In this document: one piece after another, positions 1,195 through 37,028 of the stretch
Layout of the letters: every line of letters starts with the position of its first letter
Numbering within the stretch: the stretch's first letter is position 1
Origin: a virus
DNA: 40,920 bases
Direction: 5' to 3' (one strand)
IMG/VR virus record: IMGVR_UViG_3300009553_000008
Location: 1 to 40,920 of that record
Translations under genes and position numbers: made by a program
The notes under the pieces: generated by a model
The model's database searches: none
Told to the model about the DNA's origin: nothing
What the model saw: the letters and a program-made list of their open reading frames with translations, nothing else

Positions 1195-3311
1195 TGGCAG
1201 ACAAACCCGCTCAGCCCGAGAACCAAGACCCGGCCTTGCGCTGGGGATCTGAACTGAAGTTCGCCAAGAAGACGGACGACAAATGGATTGAGCGTTCACG
1301 CAAGATCGTGAAGCGATATCGGGATGAGCGTGACGCCATCGACAGCGAGGATAGGCGCTACAACGTCTTGTGGAGCAATGTCCGCACGCTGATGCCTGCG
1401 GTGTACTCTCGCAAGCCCAAGGCTGCTGTATCGCGTCGGAACAAGGATCGAAGCGACGTAGCCCGTACTGCATCGGCCATCCTTGAGCGTGCTCTGCAGT
1501 ATGAGCTGGAGTTCTACAACGACTTCGACAGCGGCATGCGCAATGCCATCCTTGATCGACTGTTGCCGGGTCGTGGTGTGTGCTGGGTCCGGTATGAGCC
1601 GCACTTCGGTGTAGCCACTCAGGTTACCGAGGATGTCGAGACGCCCGCACAAGAGGCTGCAGAGACGCAAGAGACGCTCAAGTACGAGTGCACCCCAGTG
1701 GATTACGTCTACTGGGAAGATTTCCGCATGGCTCCTGCTCGGACCTGGGAAGAGTGTGGCTGGGTGGCTAGGCGCGTCTACATGGGCAAGGAAGAGATCG
1801 TAGAACGCTTCGGTGATGACTACGCCGACGTTCCTCGCTCGCATGTTCCGCTGGGTCTTGATGAGAAGACAGACCCCAATGCCGATCGCATGAAGAAGGC
1901 AAAGATTTGGGAGATCTGGAGCAAGACTGACGGCAAAGTTTACTGGTACGCCGAGGGTTACCCGAGGTGCCTGGATGTCAAGGACGATCCGCTAGAGCTT
2001 GATGGTTTCTTTCCATGCCCGAAGCCTCTCTATGCCACGACGACCACGGACCAAATGGTGCCGGTGCCTGACTACATCGAGTACCAGGACCAAGCGCGTG
2101 AACTGGACGAGGTGACGACTCGGATCGCATACCTTGTCAAGGCCTGCAAGGTCATCGGTGTCTATGACGCATCGCAGACCGCCATTCAGCGCATGTTCAC
2201 CGAGGGGGCGGACAACACGCTGATCCCGGTCGACACGTGGGCGATGTTTGCTGAGAAGGGCGGCATCAAGGGCGCGATTGACTGGGTGCCGCTGGACATG
2301 GTCGTGCAGGCCCTCAATCAGCTCTACCTTGCTCGGGAGCAGATCAAGCAGGTGATCTACGAGGTCACTGGGATCTCTGACATCCTGCGCGGCGCATCGC
2401 AAGCCAGCGAGACGCTGGGAGCGCAGCAGATCAAGGCGCAGTTCGCCTCCATGCGCTTGGATGACATGAAAAAGGATGTGGCCCGGTTCGCATCCGACAT
2501 CATCCGAATCAAAGCACAAATCATGTGCTCCTTTTACTCGGATGACAGCCTGATCAAGATGTCAGGCATCCAAGACACGAAGGATCAGCCTTTCATTCCG
2601 CAAGCTCTCGCCATGTTGCGCAATGAGCCCATGCGGAACTTCGCTATCGAGGTCACGGCTGACTCGCTGGCCGAGATGGACGAGATCAGCGAGCGCGATG
2701 GGCGCATGCAGTTTCTCCAGGCTGCGGGTGGCTTCCTACGGGAGGCAGTGCAGGCGGCCCAGCAAGTGCCGGAGATCGCTCCTCTGATGGGCGAGATGCT
2801 CATGTTTGCCGTGCGGGCGTGGAAGACGGCCGAGCCGCTGGAGGCGTCGTTCGAAGAGGCAATCTCCAAGATGAGCCAGCCGAAGCCGCCTGCACCACCG
2901 AGCCCCGAGGCCATCAAGGCGCAGGCCGATGCGCAGAAGTCGCAGGTTGACGCCCAGGTTGCTCAAGTCAAGGCGCAATCCGAACAGGCCAAGGCTCAGG
3001 TCGAGATGCAGAAGAGCCAAGCTGAACTTGCGATGACGCAGATGGAAATGCAGCGCATGCAGATGGAGCAGCAGCAGGCCGGCGCATTGGAGCAGTTCAA
3101 GCAGCAGGCAGCCGCTCAGATGGAGGTGATGGCGATGCAGCATGAAAAGGCGCTAGAAGCCGCCCGCCTATCGTTCGATCAGTGGAAGGCTGAGCTTGAT
3201 GCCGCAACCAAGATCGAAGTCGCAAACATCTCCGCAGCCGTGAAGATGAACGACACAGCCACGGCTGCTGCGACGGCAGAGGCTACGCAAGAGCTGAAGG
3301 GCAACGACTAG
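1194..3311 (+). CDS. Portal protein
   Basis: At 705 residues this is the size of P22-type portals, which form the dodecameric channel at the packaging vertex and connect head to tail. The N-terminal half carries a portal-like pattern: an ERSRKIVKRYRDERD start, then YNVLWSNVRTLMPAVYSRKPK, and a later YLVKACKVIGVYDASQ helix. The C-terminal 130 residues (about 570-700) are a Gln/Ala/Met-rich coiled coil full of QAKAQ and QMEMQ repeats, resembling the barrel extension of long portals. It lies between terL and scaffold, the classic position. The start overlaps the preceding stop and the TAG stop overlaps the next GTG. Confidence 0.9.
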   Translation: MADKPAQPENQDPALRWGSELKFAKKTDDKWIERSRKIVKRYRDERDAIDSEDRRYNVLWSNVRTLMPAVYSRKPKAAVSRRNKDRSDVARTASAILERALQYELEFYNDFDSGMRNAILDRLLPGRGVCWVRYEPHFGVATQVTEDVETPAQEAAETQETLKYECTPVDYVYWEDFRMAPARTWEECGWVARRVYMGKEEIVERFGDDYADVPRSHVPLGLDEKTDPNADRMKKAKIWEIWSKTDGKVYWYAEGYPRCLDVKDDPLELDGFFPCPKPLYATTTTDQMVPVPDYIEYQDQARELDEVTTRIAYLVKACKVIGVYDASQTAIQRMFTEGADNTLIPVDTWAMFAEKGGIKGAIDWVPLDMVVQALNQLYLAREQIKQVIYEVTGISDILRGASQASETLGAQQIKAQFASMRLDDMKKDVARFASDIIRIKAQIMCSFYSDDSLIKMSGIQDTKDQPFIPQALAMLRNEPMRNFAIEVTADSLAEMDEISERDGRMQFLQAAGGFLREAVQAAQQVPEIAPLMGEMLMFAVRAWKTAEPLEASFEEAISKMSQPKPPAPPSPEAIKAQADAQKSQVDAQVAQVKAQSEQAKAQVEMQKSQAELAMTQMEMQRMQMEQQQAGALEQFKQQAAAQMEVMAMQHEKALEAARLSFDQWKAELDAATKIEVANISAAVKMNDTATAAATAEATQELKGND

Positions 3312-3637: not shown

Positions 3638-4671
3638 GCGATCTTCGCGAAGCACTCGAAACAGCATTTGAGAGCGCCGAAACTGCACCTGTAGTTGAGT
3701 CGACGCCTGCCACCGAGTTGGCACAGGAAACTCAAGCCGAAGCAGAGGCACGCTCTCGTGATGAGAAAGGTCGCTTCGCTGCGAAGTCGGAGCCGGTCGA
3801 AGATGCGAAGATAACCAAGCAGCCTGAACTGAAGGCGCCTGCAGCAGCGACTGATTTGCCGCAAGATGCGCCGAAGCCGGAAGTTCAGGCTGATGCGATA
3901 AAGGCCCCAAACACGTGGCGTCCTGCAGCGGCAGCGAAGTTCGCGACTCTTGACCCGGAGATTCGCGCAGAGATCGAAAAGCGGGAAAACGATGCCCGAA
4001 TGGGTATCCAGCAATACAAACAGGCTGCAGACTTTGGTCGCGGCTTCGGTGAGGCAGCAAAGCCGTTTGAGCGCACATTTCAAGAGCTTGGAGTTACTCC
4101 GGTTCAGGCGTTTCAAACACTGTTGGCAGCAGACCACAAACTGCGCTATAGTCCGCCTCAAGAAAAGGCACGGTACTTTGCCGAGCTGGCTCAGCAGTAT
4201 GGAGTTAGCCTTGACCACATCAAGGAGGCTCCTCAGCCAGATCCGCAGTATCTGCATTTGCAGCAAGAGCTAAGTCAGCTCCGTCAGCAGCAGGAAAGTT
4301 GGCTTCGCCAGCAGCAGGAACAGGAAAGTAGCACCCTCACGAGCGCTATCGAACAGTTCAAGGCTGATCCGGCAAATCAACACTTCGAGGCAGTTCGAGA
4401 CGATATGGCAATGCTCCTTGAAAACGGGCGAGCCAAGTCACTCAAAGAAGCCTATGACATGGCCGTGTGGGTCCGACCCGATATCCGCTCCAACCTACTG
4501 AAACAACAGACGGAAGAAGCGGCGAAAAAGGCGCAGGAAGCATCTCACGTACAGCGCGCAAAGACTGCGGCAGTTGGCGTCAAGGGAAGCTCTCCGGCAT
4601 CTGGTTCGGCTACAGGCCCGAAAGACTCGTTGCGCGCCGAAATCGAAGCGGCGGCTGACAAATTCTTCTGA
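3634..4671 (+). CDS. Capsid scaffolding protein
   Basis: 345 residues starting MSDLREALETAF, highly charged and Ala/Glu/Gln-rich with an RSRDEKGRFAAK motif near residue 45, a common N-terminal signature of podoviral scaffolds. A coiled-coil segment (about residues 205-235, LQQELSQLRQQQESWLRQQQ) is predicted by eye. It lies immediately upstream of the coat gene. Scaffolds template procapsid assembly and then leave the shell. No protease gene is nearby, so release may not need proteolysis. Confidence 0.85.
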   Translation: MSDLREALETAFESAETAPVVESTPATELAQETQAEAEARSRDEKGRFAAKSEPVEDAKITKQPELKAPAAATDLPQDAPKPEVQADAIKAPNTWRPAAAAKFATLDPEIRAEIEKRENDARMGIQQYKQAADFGRGFGEAAKPFERTFQELGVTPVQAFQTLLAADHKLRYSPPQEKARYFAELAQQYGVSLDHIKEAPQPDPQYLHLQQELSQLRQQQESWLRQQQEQESSTLTSAIEQFKADPANQHFEAVRDDMAMLLENGRAKSLKEAYDMAVWVRPDIRSNLLKQQTEEAAKKAQEASHVQRAKTAAVGVKGSSPASGSATGPKDSLRAEIEAAADKFF

Positions 4672-31922: not shown

Positions 31923-31955
31923 GCAGGTGCATCACACCATGGTAGGATTACAACG

Positions 31956-32060
31956 AACCCCGGACATTTAGCGGGGCTGTGTGGTCAGACGGAAGGTGAT
32001 GCCTCTGTCAGATTGCCCAGCCAAGGGCCAGCCCCGCTAAGTCTCTGGGGTTTTTCTTTG
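31956..32060 (+). ncRNA. Three-way-junction small RNA ending in a U-tract
   Basis: A 24-position closing helix pairs 31956-31979 with 32029-32052; 23 positions pair (two G-U) and one C-C mismatches. Inside are two hairpins: 31988-32009 (8 bp with one bulge, UGAUG loop) and 32015-32028 (GCCC/GGGC, 6-nt loop). The helix is followed by TTTTTCTTT, so the RNA would self-terminate. It is too large and branched for an ordinary terminator. A promoter candidate lies just upstream (TAGGAT at 31943). Function unknown. Confidence 0.6.
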
Positions 32061-32076
32061 GTGCGACGGTTTTGGT

Positions 32077-32214
32077 GGGGCGCGAAGGTTCCAAGTTGTG
32101 GGCTGATGCGTCGATGGGGGTTGCTCCCCGGGCTCAAGCAGAGGGTGGCCGAAAAGGAACAGTCGGCCGATAAGTCCTTCAGCAAGCCGGGTTCAAGTCC
32201 CGGGCGCTCCACCA
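32077..32214 (+). ncRNA. tRNA-Ala-like RNA with two-hairpin insert in place of the anticodon
   Basis: Acceptor GGGGCGC (32077-32083) pairs with GCGCTCC (32204-32210), giving 7 bp with a G3-U70 wobble, the main identity signal for alanyl-tRNA synthetase. Discriminator A (32211) and encoded CCA (32212-32214) follow. The T arm is canonical: CCGGG/TTCAAGT/CCCGG (32187-32203), joined directly to the acceptor. The core is 103 nt instead of about 45. GCTGA (32102-32106) pairs with TCAGC (32179-32183) at the anticodon-stem position and encloses hairpins GGGG/CCCC (32117-32129) and GGCCGA/TCGGCC (32147-32168). The loop AAAGGAACAG can also pair with GGTTCC at 32087, a possible pseudoknot. No normal anticodon loop is seen. 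Confidence 0.68.
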
Positions 32215-32217
32215 AAA

Positions 32218-32458
32218 CCGTTCCTGACCGCACTCCGAGCGTGATGGCCTGGCCTGAATGGGCTGAACGGAAGAAAACACAGGGTTGTGAACCATGACAA
32301 CCCTCCGCAGCCTTGGCGCAGGGACTGCAAGAACCGGTAGCCGTGATGTGACAGGTATCGCACGGCAGGGATGTGAATGGCCCCTCAAGGGAACTTGGGC
32401 TTTCTAGGGCAGAAGAACCGGGAAGCTGGAGAAAGTGATCGACGTACGGTCACCCAGC
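32218..32458 (+). ncRNA. Run of five hairpins downstream of the tRNA-Ala-like RNA
   Basis: Hairpins by eye: CCGTTC/GAACGG (32218-32270, enclosing two smaller stems), GGGTTGT/ACAACCC with 8-nt loop (32282-32303), GCCGTG/CACGGC (32340-32366), GCCC...AAG-GGAA-CTT-GGGC with a GNRA-type tetraloop (32380-32400), and a bulged stem 32425-32458 (GCTGG/CCAGC around a GTGATCG/CGGTCAC stem). None is followed by a U-tract. The density of stable stems in 240 gene-free bases suggests one or more structured RNAs or a structured leader for the gene at 32482. Confidence 0.45.
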
Positions 32459-32481
32459 CTAGTTATGTCTGAAAGGAATGT

Positions 32482-32808
32482 GTGAGAACTCTCAAAACAT
32501 CGACCTGCTGGGCTCGAATCTACATTGCAGGCCCGATTGACGTAGCCAAGCAGGTGATTCGGCAAGACTGCCTGAGACAAGGTCTGTGCGTCACCATTGA
32601 ACCGACGACGTACATCTACTCTGGAGGCGAAGAGGAAGGCTACGTTGTGGGGCTCAACAACTACCCGCGGTTTCCCATGACGGAGCATGAAATCGAGGAG
32701 CGCGCGAAGGACCTCGCGATGAAGCTTCTTGAGGGGACGTTTCAACATTCTGTGATGCTTCAATTTGAAGGCCATACGATTTGGTACACAAAGCGGGAGC
32801 AAGCGTGA
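32482..32808 (+). CDS. Conserved phage protein, IAGPI family
   Basis: 108 residues from GTG 32482 with GAAAGGAA upstream. RIYIAGPIDVAKQVIRQDCL, TTYIYSGGEEEGYVVGLNNY and PRFPMTEHEIEERAKDLAMK match a widespread phage family of unknown role. The IAGPI start resembles nucleotide-sugar or nucleoside hydrolase-like folds only superficially. It overlaps the next gene by 4 bases. Confidence 0.75.
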   Translation: MRTLKTSTCWARIYIAGPIDVAKQVIRQDCLRQGLCVTIEPTTYIYSGGEEEGYVVGLNNYPRFPMTEHEIEERAKDLAMKLLEGTFQHSVMLQFEGHTIWYTKREQA

Positions 32809-33626
32809 AACACGTCTTTTGCTACAGCGGTGGGCACTCATCAGCAATCAGCGCCATTGAGGGTGCTCGGCGATTCGGCGCTGAAAACGTCATTCTCGTG
32901 AATCACGACCTATCTTTCACGGTTGAGGACGCTGACATCAAACGCTTCAAGCGGGAGGTGGCCGAATATATCGGCGTCCCGATCACGTATGCGAACTACA
33001 AGGGATTGCCGGCCGTGACAGTCGATCAATTTGACGTATGTGTCCAGGCGCAGGCTTTCAAGGTCAATGATGGGCCGGAGTTGTGTACGTCTAGGCTCAA
33101 GACAGAGCCGTTCATGAACTACCTTGCGGATAATTTCCCCGAAAAGGATGTGATCTGCTACTACGGATTCGATGCCAACGAGACAACTCGGATAACACGG
33201 CGCGTTGGAATCATGTCATCGATGGGGTACAAAACTGATTACCCGATGCTGTGGGAGAGCAGGTCGATTCTCAACTCTGAGGAGATCGGAATACAGCGCC
33301 CTGGTACCTACGGAGTCTTCAAGCACGGGAACTGTGTTGGATGCCTAAAGGCAGGATGGCAGCATTGGTACATCGTCTACTGCACGCGTCCTGACATCTG
33401 GCTCAAGGCCAAATGGGCAGAAGATGAGATCGGCTACGCAATTCATCATGACTCCAGCGGGCCGGTTTACTTGGAAGACATGGAGGAAAGATTTTCCGCG
33501 ATGAAGGCTGCTGGTGTAGTCGCTACCGAGCAGATGAAACATCAAACCTTTTGGGCGCAGGCGAGAAAGGTTGTAAAGATCCACCAAGAGCTGTCGCGCG
33601 CTATGCCATGCGAGTGTTCTTTTTGA
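32805..33626 (+). CDS. PP-loop (PAPS-reductase-like) adenine nucleotide alpha hydrolase
   Basis: 273 residues from GTG 32805. The N-terminus FCYSGGHSSA (PP-loop SGGxSS, residues 8-13) and LVNHDLSFTVEDADIKRFKR place it in the PAPS reductase / ATP pyrophosphatase superfamily. CTSRLKTEPF and CVGCLKAGWQHW add Cys residues for sulfur or metal chemistry. Phage members have been linked to nucleotide or DNA modification, such as DndC-like sulfur chemistry, but no partner genes are present here. Confidence 0.82.
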   Translation: MKHVFCYSGGHSSAISAIEGARRFGAENVILVNHDLSFTVEDADIKRFKREVAEYIGVPITYANYKGLPAVTVDQFDVCVQAQAFKVNDGPELCTSRLKTEPFMNYLADNFPEKDVICYYGFDANETTRITRRVGIMSSMGYKTDYPMLWESRSILNSEEIGIQRPGTYGVFKHGNCVGCLKAGWQHWYIVYCTRPDIWLKAKWAEDEIGYAIHHDSSGPVYLEDMEERFSAMKAAGVVATEQMKHQTFWAQARKVVKIHQELSRAMPCECSF

Positions 33627-33633
33627 GGAAAAC

Positions 33634-34002
33634 ATGATCGAACTCCCTGTATGGATAGACCCTGAAGCATGGCAAGGCTTCGTAGAAATGAGGCTCGCCA
33701 AGGGCAAACGAACCCCCTTCACGCCGAGGGCTGCAAAGATGATTCTCAAGACCCTTGAGGAACTGAAGGAAGCAGGACATGACGCAAATGCCTCTCTAGA
33801 CCAATCGACGCTCGCAGGATGGAGCGACGTATACGAACCCAAGCAGAAGAGCATTCGGCGTGCCCAAGGGGCCGGAGACACTGCAGCCAAGCGCTGGCTG
33901 GCTGAGCATGCGGATGCTCCTGTTCAAGACGAAGCATCCAAAGAAGCAACCCGGCAACGCCTAGCGGCAGCCCGGCAATCAATCGTAAGGAGAGTAGCGT
34001 GA
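33634..34002 (+). CDS. Conserved phage protein near recombination genes
   Basis: 122 residues from ATG 33634 with GAGGAAAAC upstream. LPVWIDPEAWQGFVEMRLAK, RAAKMILKTLEELKEAGHDA and ASLDQSTLAGWSDVYEPKQK form a pattern found at the C-terminus of phage replication O-like proteins and as stand-alone proteins. It may be a relic or adaptor of a replication module. No O/P or DnaC-like gene is recognised. Confidence 0.68.
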   Translation: MIELPVWIDPEAWQGFVEMRLAKGKRTPFTPRAAKMILKTLEELKEAGHDANASLDQSTLAGWSDVYEPKQKSIRRAQGAGDTAAKRWLAEHADAPVQDEASKEATRQRLAAARQSIVRRVA

Positions 34003-34490
34003 GCAAAGCAGACTTGAGCTTGCTTGCTGGCCCGGTGCCAATCGATAGAGTTGCGCGCCGTGTGACCAAGAAATCAGCTCCTGAGAACCTATGGCAACCG
34101 CCGGTGCGAATCATGGATCACAACCGATTCTCAAGGGAAATCATCCGTACCGGACCTCTTCCGAAGGCCGCTCCGAAGGAATTGCATGGACTGATCGGAA
34201 AACGACGAGGAAGTATGGTCATTATCGGCTATGCGGAAGAGCAGCCCAAAGGGAGATGCTCACGTGCTCAATGGGTGGTGCGATGTGACTGCGGAAACTA
34301 CGAGGGGCGCAGCCGAATCCTGCGATGGCTCGGAACTGTTGCGCCTGATTTTTGCCTTGAATGCTGTAGGCGCGCCTACCTCAAGAGCGGAAATGGTGAA
34401 TATAGCCCGCGAGCAGCGGCCAGCAGAAATGCGCTGAAGCTTGACGAAATAAACCCTGTAGCGTGTGCTACTGAGAGGAAGATAGTGTGA
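33999..34490 (+). CDS. Zinc-binding hypothetical protein
   Basis: 163 residues from GTG 33999. The C-terminal half has WVVRCDCGNYEGRSRILRWL and PDFCLECCRRAYLKS, a CxC-x20-CxxC arrangement seen in phage zinc proteins often adjacent to HNH-type genes. The N-terminal half (RRVTKKSAPENLW) is basic. Possibly a nucleic-acid-binding protein. Confidence 0.65.
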   Translation: MSKADLSLLAGPVPIDRVARRVTKKSAPENLWQPPVRIMDHNRFSREIIRTGPLPKAAPKELHGLIGKRRGSMVIIGYAEEQPKGRCSRAQWVVRCDCGNYEGRSRILRWLGTVAPDFCLECCRRAYLKSGNGEYSPRAAASRNALKLDEINPVACATERKIV

Positions 34491-34687
34491 CAACAGAATA
34501 CGAAAGAGGCTTCGCAGCCGGAGAGCGCAAAGCCTGGGAAGACCGAAACACTCCCCGGATGGCAGTACGCCCCGAGAAGTCAGCAAGCGAATGGGAGCGC
34601 GGTTACATGGACGGATATTTCCCGCGCAGTCTTACATGGAGCCTGCGCAAGCCGGCAATCAAGTCATATGCGGAGGTTGATGCATGA
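34487..34687 (+). CDS. Small hypothetical protein
   Basis: 66 residues from GTG 34487. YERGFAAGERKAWEDRNTPR and WERGYMDGYFPRSLTW form a duplicated (Y/W)ERG(F/Y) motif. No family recognised. Confidence 0.6.
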   Translation: MTTEYERGFAAGERKAWEDRNTPRMAVRPEKSASEWERGYMDGYFPRSLTWSLRKPAIKSYAEVDA

Positions 34688-35247
34688 CTGAATCTTTCAG
34701 AACCCTCACTACAACCATTCTTCAGCTCTCAGCCCGCGATGGCGGAGCAGTGACTACTGACCTGACGGTGCTTGGCTACACGCAAGAAGCCGTTTCGCGA
34801 GCTACCTATGCACTACGCAAGGCGGGTCGTCTGTGGAGCTTCAAACGCTCAGGTGGTGCTCAGTACCACGCAACAGAGGAAGCATTCCTCATCGCCAGTG
34901 CCGAATGGAACGCCGGAGCCAAAGAGCGATTGCGAGCACGAGAGCGAGAAAAATACGCCAAGAAGAAGCTGACAGACCCGGCGTGGATCGAAGCCAAGAA
35001 TGCGCGGGTAATCGCCACTCGGGCCAAGCGACTGGCAGCAAGCGGGGTCAAGCCGAAGGTCAAGAAGCCTCGGGAATACAAGGTGACGCCGAAGCAGAAA
35101 CCATCATTCCCGGCAAACGTGACGATAAAATCGTCAGCACGCGGGCCGGCGTATTTGCCCGGTGATCCGGTGTTTACGAGGCAGACGAAATACACCTTCG
35201 GGGTGTCGCCGACGAATCCGACTCATACCAATACGCACGCGGAGTGA
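34684..35247 (+). CDS. Winged-helix DNA-binding protein
   Basis: 187 residues from ATG 34684. The first 65 residues look like a winged helix (ILQLSARDGGAVTTDLTVLG, then TQEAVSRATYALRKAGRLWS as recognition helix and wing). The rest is a basic, Lys/Arg-rich tail suited to nucleic-acid binding. A regulator or replication-associated protein is likely. Confidence 0.68.
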   Translation: MTESFRTLTTTILQLSARDGGAVTTDLTVLGYTQEAVSRATYALRKAGRLWSFKRSGGAQYHATEEAFLIASAEWNAGAKERLRAREREKYAKKKLTDPAWIEAKNARVIATRAKRLAASGVKPKVKKPREYKVTPKQKPSFPANVTIKSSARGPAYLPGDPVFTRQTKYTFGVSPTNPTHTNTHAE

Positions 35248-35249
35248 TC

Positions 35250-35411
35250 ATGCCAAAGATTGACTACGGTTCAAACCAAGGCCGCGAATACGACGAATTC
35301 GCAGAAATCAACCATACAGAGCGCCGCAAATACATGTGGATCGTTCTGATTGCTGACATCATTGCCATCGTTGGCATCGCTCTTTGGGTTCATGCTTGGG
35401 CGACGGCGTGA
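35250..35411 (+). CDS. Single-span membrane micro-protein
   Basis: 53 residues from ATG 35250: charged N-terminus, then WIVLIADIIAIVGIALWVHA as one membrane helix at the C-terminus (tail-anchored topology). GTGA-coupled to ninB. Confidence 0.62.
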   Translation: MPKIDYGSNQGREYDEFAEINHTERRKYMWIVLIADIIAIVGIALWVHAWATA

Positions 35412-35842
35412 GCGAATTCAGGCACTTCGCCAAGCTCCACAACGCGCAAGACGGGCATGCAGTCCTTCAGCGTTTATGGACAGTTGCGAAGCCCTGGCTG
35501 CTTGCTGGGCACGTTCTGGAAGTGCGAGTAGGCCCCGAGACGCGCACGTCAGCAGAGAATGCATTGCTGCATGCCATGCTGACCTATATCTCCAAGCACC
35601 ACGAATGGGCCGGCAAGAAACGCGATGTCGAGACGTGGAAGCGGCTCATGGTGGCGGCATGGACACGGGCAATCGGCGAGCCTATCGAGCTTCTGCCGGC
35701 GCTGGATGGGAATGGCGTGGATATCGTCTTCAGACGCACCAGCCAGCTCAACAAGCGCGAGTGTGCGGACTTGATCGAATTCGTCTACGCCTGGGGTGCT
35801 CAGAACGACGTGAACTTTCCTCCGAAGCCGGCGCTGGAATGA
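35408..35842 (+). CDS. ninB: Recombination protein NinB
   Basis: 144 residues from GTG 35408. SEFRHFAKLHNAQDGHAVLQ, LEVRVGPETRTSAENALLHA and SKHHEWAGKKRDVETWKRLM are the NinB (lambda Orf) family pattern. Orf helps load recombination proteins on single-stranded DNA in place of RecFOR. The next gene is ninG, the usual lambdoid neighbour. Confidence 0.88.
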   Translation: MSEFRHFAKLHNAQDGHAVLQRLWTVAKPWLLAGHVLEVRVGPETRTSAENALLHAMLTYISKHHEWAGKKRDVETWKRLMVAAWTRAIGEPIELLPALDGNGVDIVFRRTSQLNKRECADLIEFVYAWGAQNDVNFPPKPALE

Positions 35843-36390
35843 AGACCTGCAAGATCTGCAAAACCAAGTTTGAGGCTCAACGGCCGATGCAGTCCGTGTG
35901 CAGTCTTGATTGTGCGATTCATAGCTCAAAGAAGGCGCGAGCATGGGCAGCCAAGGAAGATAGGAAGACAACCCGGGTGAAGCTGGAGAAGCTGAAGACC
36001 CGATCAACATGGATGAAGGAGGCCCAACGTGAATTCAATCGGTACATTCGTGAGCGGGATCGTGTGGCAGGATTTGGATGCATCTCCAGCGGTCGTGCGC
36101 TGGATTGGTCAGGGAACGCGACAGACGCCGGCCACTTCCGCAGTGTCGGGTCGGCGCCACACCTCAGATTCAACGAAGACAACTGTCACGCCCAATCGAA
36201 GCATGCAAACCGTTATCTCAGTGGTGATGCGGTCAACTATCGCATGCGTCTGATTGAACGGATCGGCCTTGAGCGTGTCGAAGCGCTTGAGGCAGACCAA
36301 ACGCCACGCCATTACGACATATCAGACCTCAAAGCCATAAAGGAAAAGTATAAGAAGATGGCTCGGGAGCTGAAGAAGAATGCGGCATAA
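35839..36390 (+). CDS. ninG: Recombination protein NinG (Rap)
   Basis: 183 residues from ATG 35839. KTCKICKTKFEAQRPMQSVC SLDC gives the N-terminal zinc knuckle, then EAQREFNRYIRERDRVAGFG CISSGR and DAGHFRSVGSAPHLRFNEDN CHAQSKHANRYLSG form the HNH-like core of NinG/Rap, a structure-specific Holliday-junction/D-loop nuclease. The frame stays open upstream to 35350, but the ATGA overlap with ninB fixes the start. It ends 7 bases before the first tRNA-like element. Confidence 0.9.
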   Translation: MKTCKICKTKFEAQRPMQSVCSLDCAIHSSKKARAWAAKEDRKTTRVKLEKLKTRSTWMKEAQREFNRYIRERDRVAGFGCISSGRALDWSGNATDAGHFRSVGSAPHLRFNEDNCHAQSKHANRYLSGDAVNYRMRLIERIGLERVEALEADQTPRHYDISDLKAIKEKYKKMARELKKNAA

Positions 36391-36397
36391 TAGAGTC

Positions 36398-36518
36398 TCT
36401 GGAGCGGCGTGGAAGGACACGCTAGACGGAGTAGATCAGCAGGGTTGAACTATCACCCGACCGATGCGCCTTGAAGGCTGGCAGATCGCTGAAGCAGGTA
36501 TCAAGCGCTGCCTCCAGA
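36398..36518 (+). ncRNA. tRNA-like element 1 (two-hairpin anticodon replacement)
   Basis: Acceptor TCTGGAG (36398-36404) pairs with CTCCAGA (36512-36518), 7 bp. D-like arm GCGTG-GAAGGA-CACGC (36407-36422). A helix TCAGC (36436-36440)/GCTGA (36488-36492) stands at the anticodon-stem position and encloses hairpins GGGT/ACCC (36442-36458) and TGCGCC/GGC-GCA (36465-36483, TTGAA loop). T-like arm GCAG/CTGC (36494-36511) abuts the acceptor but its loop is not canonical. Same topology as the RNA at 32077. No CCA. Confidence 0.5.
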
Positions 36519-36532
36519 ACTTTAGAGAATTG

Positions 36533-36676
36533 AATTCAGCGGTGGCGAAATTGGTAGACGCACCGTCCAGAAGGGTGATACGCGTCGCCCGGCGTGCTCT
36601 GCTCAAACCCGAGCAGATAGGCAGAGCAAGCCAGACGGCGTTCGGGATTGGAGGTTCGAATCCTCCCCGCTGAATT
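36533..36676 (+). ncRNA. tRNA-Leu-like element 2 lacking an anticodon loop
   Basis: The best tRNA match of the island. Acceptor TCAGCGG/CCGCTGA (36536-36542/36667-36673), extended outward by AAT/ATT to 10 bp. D arm GCG-AAATTGGTAGA-CGC (36545-36561) and T arm GGAGG-TTCGAAT-CCTCC (36650-36666) are canonical and Leu-like. The anticodon stem CCGTC/GACGG (36563-36567/36634-36638) is intact, but the loop is replaced by 66 nt that fold into GGGTGA/TCGCCC (36573-36590) and GGC-GCTCTGC/GCAGAGC-GCC (36591-36632). No U33, so a normal spliced loop is not evident. No encoded CCA. Confidence 0.7.
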
Positions 36677-36678
36677 GA

Positions 36679-36774
36679 GTACTCTGATGGTGGCCGTAGC
36701 TGACGCGCAGTTAGCGGTGCTCCTTCCACCGTCTCCAACGGCAGGCGTAACATCCTGCGCCACCTTCAGAGTGC
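36679..36774 (+). ncRNA. tRNA-like element 3 with CCU loop and 16-bp closing stem
   Basis: Closing stem 36679-36694/36759-36774: 16 positions with one U-U mismatch and one G-U. Inside: a D-like hairpin GCTGA/TTAGC (36699-36715), an anticodon-like hairpin CGGTG-CTCCTTC-CACCG (36715-36731; 5-bp stem, 7-nt loop with U33 and CCU at 34-36, the Arg anticodon for AGG), and a T-like arm GCAGG/CCTGC (36741-36758) with a non-canonical 8-nt loop. The T-like stem abuts the closing stem. Position 37 is U, unusual. Confidence 0.5.
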
Positions 36775-36885
36775 TTTGTCTAGGTCGCTTGCAGGCGCGT
36801 CTGCAAGTGCATGGGTAGCAAGGTCGGATGGTCGCTCCATTCCAGACGGTGAACCGTAGTTCGATTCGACGGGGCCTAGACAAAG
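36774..36885 (+). ncRNA. tRNA-like element 4 with canonical T arm
   Basis: Closing stem CTTTGTCTAGG/CCTAGACAAAG (36774-36784/36875-36885), 11 bp perfect, extending to 13 with a U-G and a C-G pair. A strong hairpin CTTGCAG/CTGCAAG (36788-36807) sits at the D-arm position. ATGG/CCAT (36811-36840) occupies the anticodon position, CGG-TGAA-CCG (36847-36856) the variable arm. The T loop TTCGATT (36860-36866) is canonical, with a stem CCGTAG/CGACGG holding one A-G mismatch. Some stems overlap, so alternatives exist. It shares base 36774 with element 3. Confidence 0.48.
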
Positions 36886-36887
36886 TG

Positions 36888-37028
36888 CTTGCTTACAGAT
36901 GCTGAATGCGCAGGTCGATGCGCAATGCTGAGGTCACCTAGCATGGACGAAATTTAGAGTGGCTTGCCCGTTTGTGGCGTAACGAGCGCAACGCAGGAAT
37001 TCGACACCTGCCAGCATCTGTAAGCAAG
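36888..37028 (+). ncRNA. tRNA-like element 5 with 17-bp closing stem
   Basis: Arms 36888-36904 and 37012-37028 are perfectly complementary over 17 bp. Inside are TGCGC/GCGCA with loop AGGTCGAT (36907-36924, D-like), TGCTG/TAGCA (36926-36943), a bulged stem TTGC...CGTT/AACG...GCAA (36964-36991), and a T-like arm GCAGG-AATTCGACA-CCTGC (36993-37011) that abuts the closing stem and has UUCGA in its loop. Five-way junction overall, like a tRNA with a large variable arm. It ends 20 bases before the next gene, whose RBS AAGGAG follows. Confidence 0.52.

What the first reader, a model, noticed from the sequence alone, without database searches (positions are those of the whole stretch)
31956..36676. 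A shared RNA architecture: acceptor, D arm, capped anticodon helix, T arm
Three RNAs (32077, 36398, 36533) share this plan in one small genome, while a fourth (36679) has a compact cloverleaf. The repeated design across two islands suggests function and a new class of phage tRNA-like RNA. Plausible roles: decoys for aminoacyl-tRNA synthetases or tRNA nucleases, charged-amino-acid stores, or translation regulators.
Basis: inference. Interest (0 to 1): 0.9.

Follow-up and report, generated by a model that had tools for sequence, protein, structure and literature searches.

The report
Phage tRNA-like RNAs with swappable inserts
This phage carries an array of folded RNAs that look like tRNAs but have no anticodon; two belong to very large, unnamed families found in many phages, in which a fixed tRNA-like frame holds a middle piece that is exchanged from phage to phage, possibly as a weapon or decoy against the host cell.

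Summary
ARAGORN and Rfam find nothing. Two islands hold about seven tRNA-like elements, T1-T7. T3 belongs to "type B" (covariance model built without it: E=1.9e-12). T7, outside the given span, belongs to "type A" (E=7.3e-14). T2 and T4 keep canonical T arms (T4 also a tRNA-Leu-like D arm) but have no anticodon loop; no relative of theirs was found. Type A is in 172 phage records and 971 of 5,426 complete E. coli genomes, including P1-like plasmids, and was unannotated wherever I looked. Type B is in alpha- and betaproteobacterial phages. Both have an acceptor-like stem, D-like hairpin, hypervariable insert and T-like hairpin. Acceptor pairing covaries strongly; in type A the D and T loops are complementary and covary. 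302 inserts fall into 227 clusters and swap between near-identical phages and between A and B frames. Rfam's STnc100 (prophage sRNA) is a distant match to type A. Best reading: exchangeable payload RNAs in a tRNA-like chassis, probably acting in trans on host factors; anti-defence is my leading guess, Hfq-type base pairing the main rival. Function is inferred, not shown.

The parts
31955..32055 (+). T1: very stable long hairpin followed by a T run (terminator-like or tRNA-like); replaced by an unrelated hairpin in the relative L004
   Evidence: fold z -7.7; cassette swap with conserved flanks
32069..32216 (+). T2: tRNA-like RNA; extended acceptor stem, canonical T arm CCGGG-TTCAAGT-CCCGG, large insert in place of the anticodon arm; the encoded CCA lies inside the extended acceptor helix
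   Evidence: z -2.4
35839..36390 (+). ninG/rap gene upstream of the second island
   Evidence: phrog_171, E=7e-78
36398..36518 (+). T3: type B element (acceptor TCTGGAG/CTCCAGA, D-like hairpin, insert, T-like hairpin)
   Evidence: model R1, E=1.9e-12
36406..36422 (+). T3 D-like hairpin GGCGTGGAAGGACACGC, identical to the type B core
36423..36493 (+). T3 insert; homologous to the insert of L266, with compensatory stem changes (TCAGC/GCTGA vs CCCCG/CGGGG)
   Evidence: 110 nt, 74.5%, E=6e-12
36494..36511 (+). T3 T-like hairpin GCAGG-TATCAAGC-GCTGC
36535..36676 (+). T4: tRNA-Leu-like D arm, T arm GGAGG-TTCGAAT-CCTCC, acceptor TCAGCGG/CCGCTGA; anticodon loop replaced by a two-hairpin insert of about 65 nt, no U33 or anticodon loop
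   Evidence: z -2.9
36678..36773 (+). T5: compact cloverleaf-like RNA with extended acceptor
   Evidence: z -3.8
36776..36883 (+). T6: tRNA-like RNA, acceptor TTGTCTAGG/CCTAGACAA, T-like loop TTCGATT
   Evidence: z -2.3
36888..37028 (+). T7: type A element with a 17-bp acceptor stem; 95.7% identical copy in L004
   Evidence: model R2, E=7.3e-14; z -5.1
36907..36924 (+). T7 D-like hairpin TGCGC-AGGTCGAT-GCGCA; loop complementary to the T loop
36925..36992 (+). T7 insert (payload position)
36993..37011 (+). T7 T-like hairpin GCAGG-AATTCGACA-CCTGC

Best explanation
T3 and T7, and by architecture probably T2 and T4-T6, are non-coding phage RNAs built as chassis plus payload. The chassis is tRNA-like: an acceptor-like closing stem, a short D-like hairpin after 1-3 nt, and a T-like hairpin directly abutting the 3' acceptor strand. 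In type A the D and T loops can pair, as in a tRNA elbow. The payload replaces the anticodon arm and is exchanged as a cassette. Shown by sequence analysis: the structure, the homology, the hypervariability, the cassette exchange and the sharing of payloads between chassis. Inferred: (i) the RNA is cut from, or terminated within, the phage late leader or tRNA-cluster transcript and persists because the closed tRNA-like ends resist decay; (ii) the payload acts in trans by binding a specific host protein or RNA; (iii) the turnover reflects an arms race, most likely with anti-phage defences, so that the payloads work as decoys or inhibitors.
For: Homology: T3 E=1.9e-12 to type B, T7 E=7.3e-14 to type A. 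Covariation, type B acceptor: 96.5% paired over 57 distinct acceptors, 55.7% when halves are swapped between elements (highest of 200 swaps 62.4%). Type A: 91.7% against 70.3% (highest 76.6%). Type A loop-loop pairing covaries: D CTGAT with T ATCAG, TCGAT with ATCGA, one TTGAT with ATCAA. Payload turnover: 302 inserts form 227 clusters; all 212 insert similarities are in sense orientation. Near-identical flanks with unrelated inserts: L090/L186 and L094/L176. The same payload in A and B chassis: L097/L218 E=8e-20, L184/L234 E=2e-17, L328/L321 E=4e-15. T3's payload recurs in another phage with compensatory stems. Context: late-operon head (Q upstream, lysis genes downstream); tRNAs within 1 kb in 24 of 240 loci, always on the same strand; a Tad2 anti-defence gene near the P1-like array. 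Published work: phage tRNAs counteract tRNA-attacking defences (PMC11555353, PMC13096335; abstracts).
Against: No expression, binding or anti-defence data exist for types A or B. Obvious mimicry is rare: tRNA T arms in 2 of 207 inserts (0.06 expected by shuffling), one 16S helix-11 family, and otherwise no rRNA similarity clearly above shuffles. Inserts are only mildly more stable than shuffles (mean z -0.65 for A, -0.23 for B). The relative STnc100/PasD is described as an Hfq-bound base-pairing sRNA (PMC13192938), which favours the rival. The link to tRNA genes is only about two-fold over random positions. Tad2 proximity is a single case.
Confidence: 0.42

Rival explanations
1. The RNAs are Hfq- or ProQ-dependent base-pairing sRNAs, as reported for STnc100/PasD. 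The variable middle carries the seed that pairs with host or prophage mRNAs, and the conserved frame gives stability.
For: The type A model finds the Rfam STnc100 sites in L202 (3736-3858, E=1e-5 over 740 kb; E=3e-8 locally) and L159; STnc100 shares the closing stem, the GGUGAAU linker and the abutting 3' hairpin. PasD is abundant, Hfq-bound and shown by northern blot (PMC13192938). Intrinsic terminators follow 29 of 122 type A elements against 5.7 expected.
Against: Payloads shared between chassis keep long conserved cores and covarying hairpins over 70-110 nt, more like structured aptamers than a short seed. Most type A and nearly all type B elements have no nearby terminator. No terminator was found after T3-T7 in the window.
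Confidence: 0.33
2. The elements act in cis in the late leader: they shape termination/antitermination, processing or stability of the downstream transcript.
For: Many type A elements lie between Q and the lysis genes, where the late promoter and its early terminator are expected.
Against: Occurrence in other contexts (tRNA clusters of P1-like plasmids and large lytic phages, after ninG, near terminases), several per phage, and payloads unrelated in near-identical flanks; a cis device would not need this diversity.
Confidence: 0.12
3. They are decayed or chimeric tRNA genes without function, kept by recombination at tRNA clusters.
For: T2 and T4 keep real tRNA arms; one insert (L146) is a tRNA lacking its anticodon arm (34 bits); the islands sit where phages keep tRNAs.
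Against: Compensatory changes in acceptors and in the D/T loop contact in hundreds of phages show purifying selection on structure.
Confidence: 0.08

Closest known systems
STnc100 (Rfam RF02076) and PasD prophage sRNAs of enterobacteria
   Same: Closing stem, GGUGAAU linker into a 5' hairpin, variable middle, 3' hairpin abutting the closing stem; prophage late region; the type A model finds STnc100 sites
   Different: STnc100 has a short 3' loop (GAGGC) with no visible D/T loop pairing. It is described as one sRNA with seeds; hypervariable exchangeable payloads are not described. Type B does not match it.
Phage-encoded tRNAs
   Same: Place in the genome (late-operon head, tRNA clusters), acceptor/D/T arm plan; T2 and T4 have canonical T arms
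   Different: No anticodon loop; acceptor of 7-17 bp; extended helix buries any CCA; not detected by ARAGORN or the Rfam tRNA model
tmRNA
   Same: tRNA-like ends with something else in place of the anticodon arm
   Different: No tag reading frame or tmRNA consensus; Rfam tmRNA models give only sub-threshold hits
GOLLD and ROOL phage RNAs
   Same: Structured, phage-borne RNAs near tRNA genes (GOLLD; from memory)
   Different: Far larger RNAs with their own conserved folds; no Rfam match here

Membership tests
Type B scaffold family (defined here) | C-GGCGTGGANGGACACGC core, T-like hairpin with (T/A)ATCAAG-type loop, complementary acceptors abutting both | tested here: met
   T3: exact core and R1 E=1.9e-12, window not in the training set
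Type A scaffold family (defined here) | GAATGCGCAGG-NNN-ATGCGC core, T-like hairpin, D/T loop complementarity, complementary acceptors | tested here: met
   T7: R2 E=7.3e-14, D loop GTCGA pairs with T loop TCGAC
STnc100 (RF02076) | Match to the Rfam covariance model | tested here: not met
   No hit in the window; T7 is a distant relative only through the type A model
STnc100 (RF02076) | Expressed, Hfq-bound, 3' poly-U terminator | not testable with these tools
   No terminator-like site found directly after T3-T7; Hfq binding needs experiment
tRNA | Cloverleaf with a 7-nt anticodon loop and a free CCA end | tested here: not met
   ARAGORN 0, Rfam tRNA no hit; T4 lacks U33 and an anticodon loop
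Decoy of tRNA- or rRNA-attacking enzymes | Payload resembles a tRNA or rRNA part beyond chance | tested here: inconclusive
   Clear in a few inserts (16S nt 243-282, E about 2e-7; tRNA T arms 2 observed vs 0.06 expected), not in most
tmRNA | Rfam tmRNA model above gathering score | tested here: not met
   None in the window

The most novel reading that the evidence does not exclude
Phages across Proteobacteria share an RNA display system: several interchangeable tRNA-like chassis (types A and B, STnc100-like and others in the same arrays) present a fast-evolving library of structured RNA payloads that bind and neutralise host defence or stress factors, an RNA counterpart of protein anti-defence islands.
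Probability: 0.33. Interest if true: 0.95.

Novelty: new variant of a known kind. Interest (0 to 1): 0.84.

Why it matters
A strict-consensus subset (one insert-length range) already gives 102 viral-contig stretches, and its overlap with the broader scan suggests on the order of one to two thousand type A carriers in IMG/VR (rough estimate). About one in six complete E. coli genomes carries one, including P1-like plasmids, yet no Rfam model covers them and I found no description. If the payloads are anti-defence RNAs, this is a large, readable store of natural RNA inhibitors, with the variable part marked by fixed borders. Even under the sRNA reading it turns an orphan family (STnc100/PasD) into one member of a large modular class and makes its function testable by payload swaps in laboratory phages.

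Tried and rejected
Direct BLAST of the islands against 50,697 phages: none. One shared family for T2, T3 and T4: rejected. A generic structural descriptor: too weak. rRNA mimicry as a general rule: an apparent sense bias vanished against shuffles; the 15-nt match of T7's insert to 16S 1098-1112 is within chance. D-arm mimicry: 31 inserts vs 17 +/- 3.4 in shuffles, but the motif is loose. An intron-bearing tRNA for T4: rejected, no U33/anticodon loop once the insert is removed. E. coli K-12 Qin prophage: no type A. The first type A acceptor test used too loose an anchor (78.6% vs 64.3%) and was redone. Literature searches by motif and by topic found no description of types A or B; the library lacks most subscription papers and most preprints, so prior description cannot be excluded. 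BLAST of one type B element against phages: none, not an exhaustive test.

Full report
WHAT IS THERE. The window is a 40,920-base IMG/VR virus record. ninG (phrog_171, E=7e-78), ninB and terminase/portal genes are clear. ARAGORN finds no tRNA, and Rfam finds nothing in the window or, with lax filters, in the two islands. Reading and folding the islands gives T1 (31955-32055) and T2 (32069-32216), then a tight array behind ninG: T3 (36398-36518), T4 (36535-36676), T5 (36678-36773), T6 (36776-36883) and T7 (36888-37028). Fold z-scores run from -1.7 to -7.7.

THE KEY LINK. In loci fetched only by similarity to ninG, the 5' part of T7 was found again in several unrelated phages. Listing the hits shows one plan: variable acceptor, AA, D-like hairpin GCGC-AGGCTGAT-GCGC, an insert of any sequence, T-like hairpin GCCGG-AGATCAGCA-CCGGC, and the complement of the acceptor. 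This is type B.

MODELS. Models built from 33 type B and 34 type A elements, without the window, find T3 (E=1.9e-12) and T7 (E=7.3e-14). In the 80 ninG-selected loci, type A occurs in 8, always on the ninG strand and downstream. T1, T2, T4, T5 and T6 have no model hit and no BLAST relative beyond tRNA arms.

COVARIATION. The 5' and 3' parts were anchored by conserved core sequence without using acceptor pairing. In type B the seven acceptor positions pair in 96.5% of cells over 57 distinct acceptors; re-pairing 5' and 3' parts between elements gives 55.7% (highest of 200: 62.4%), and all four Watson-Crick types occur at several positions. In type A the figures are 91.7% against 70.3% (highest 76.6%). 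In type A the D loop can pair with the T loop, and the pair changes together: CTGAT/ATCAG in most, TCGAT/ATCGA in T7, L004, L328, L331, L332 and others, TTGAT/ATCAA in L344. Two TTGAT elements keep ATCAG, which a G-U pair allows. A descriptor that includes this contact gave 407 parses in the fetched loci against 16 in shuffled sequence; parses are redundant and most loci had been chosen by the motif.

PAYLOADS. Median insert length is about 74 nt (A) and 80 nt (B). Of 302 inserts, 195 are singletons and there are 227 clusters; all 212 significant similarities are in the same orientation. Near-identical phages differ exactly in the insert: L090/L186 (flanks 91.5% and 96.0%) and L094/L176 (94.8% and 96.2%). 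The same payload occurs in A and B chassis: L097/L218, L184/L234, L328/L321. Against its relative L004 (65% identical NinG), the window shows replacement of the first island between conserved flanks, and of T3-T6, while T7 is kept at 95.7%. T3's payload is homologous to that of L266 (110 nt, 74.5%, E=6e-12). Read by eye, TCAGC/GCTGA in T3 corresponds to CCCCG/CGGGG in L266, and GCCT/AGGC to GCCC/GGGC, while RGACGGAGTAGA and CCGACCGATGCGCC are kept: a defined fold with constant linkers.

WHERE IT LIVES. Type A: 172 phage records (Klebsiella, Escherichia, Pseudomonas, Salmonella and others), 971 of 5,426 complete E. coli genomes, on chromosomes and plasmids. In CUS-3 and E. coli D6 it lies between Q and the holin. 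In a P1-like plasmid it lies among phage tRNA genes, with a Tad2 anti-defence gene about 2 kb away. In Klebsiella phage Madison it lies in a 3.2-kb unannotated stretch beside tRNAs. PHROG matches of neighbours agree: Q-type antiterminators upstream, holins and endolysins downstream. Type B neighbours are mixed, with terminases on either side; its bacterial carriers include Acetobacter, Sphingomonas, Bordetella and Chromobacterium. tRNAs lie within 1 kb in 24 of 240 loci, all on the same strand, about twice the random expectation. Intrinsic terminators follow 29 of 122 type A elements (5.7 expected) and 8 of 102 type B (1.5 expected).

LINK TO A KNOWN sRNA. Rfam STnc100 and the type A model hit the same sites in L202 and L159. 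The alignments agree on the closing stem, the GGUGAAU linker and the abutting 3' hairpin. STnc100 is thus very probably a distant relative of type A. A 2026 preprint by Zhu, Shabalina and Storz (PMC13192938) relates STnc100 to PasD, an abundant Hfq-bound prophage sRNA confirmed by northern blot whose function is unknown. This makes expression of types A and B plausible and gives the base-pairing rival real weight.

MIMICRY. The decoy idea was tested against shuffles. A 16S helix-11 copy (nt 243-282, E about 2e-7) recurs in type A inserts, and one type B insert (L263) resembles the same region more weakly. Intact tRNA T arms occur in 2 of 207 inserts against 0.06 expected, and L146's insert is a tRNA without its anticodon arm (34 bits). 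Beyond these, rRNA similarity does not clearly exceed shuffles. Mimicry is real but rare, so if the payloads are decoys or inhibitors, most bind by shapes that I cannot recognise.

JUDGEMENT. Shown: two large families of selected RNA structures with exchanged inserts, two members in this window, and a distant tie to STnc100. Inferred: action in trans and anti-defence. I rate trans-acting structured payloads, probably anti-defence, at 0.42, base-pairing sRNA at 0.33, cis leader function at 0.12, and decayed tRNA genes (for the non-A, non-B elements) at 0.08. Prior description cannot be excluded, because many papers are not in the searchable library.

Noticed in passing
L202:2925-3545, L203:2940-3020, L204:2930-3010, L205 near 2890-3010: A further element family, CACAACAGGTAAGRGCA ... 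TGCYCTTWCCGTTGTG, sits directly 5' of type A in enterobacterial phages; its 3' strand overlaps the 5' acceptor strand of type A, so the two stems exclude each other. In phage Madison its insert is tRNA-Leu-like, similar in kind to T4.
   Followed up: partly
L079:4247-4293, L154, L162, L073, L339 and others: A copy of 16S rRNA helix 11 (E. coli nt 243-282) is carried as the insert of type A elements; Rfam reports it as a partial microsporidian SSU rRNA match.
   Followed up: partly
L110:715-773 (minus strand): A tRNA-like sequence lacking its D arm, just below the Rfam tRNA cut-off, next to type A elements.
   Followed up: no
L166:676-756: Rfam Proteo-phage-1 RNA (RF03044) lies about 140 nt upstream of a type A element.
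   Followed up: no
window 32781-33626: PP-loop protein of the phosphoadenosine phosphosulfate reductase type (phrog_424, E=2e-24) between the two islands.
   Followed up: no
L205:1937-5150: Klebsiella phage Madison has a 3.2-kb unannotated stretch that reads as a series of such structured RNAs, including an STnc100 match at 4338-4552.
   Followed up: partly
window 32260-32480: Further apparently non-coding sequence with stable hairpins after T2; part of it (about 32219-32283) is conserved in L004.
   Followed up: no
L130, L177, L189, L203 (type A) and L301 (type B): Nested payloads: a shared outer module (GGTGANCGAG ... AAAACGAGGCGT-N-ACGCCTA) encloses a second, variable inner part.
   Followed up: no
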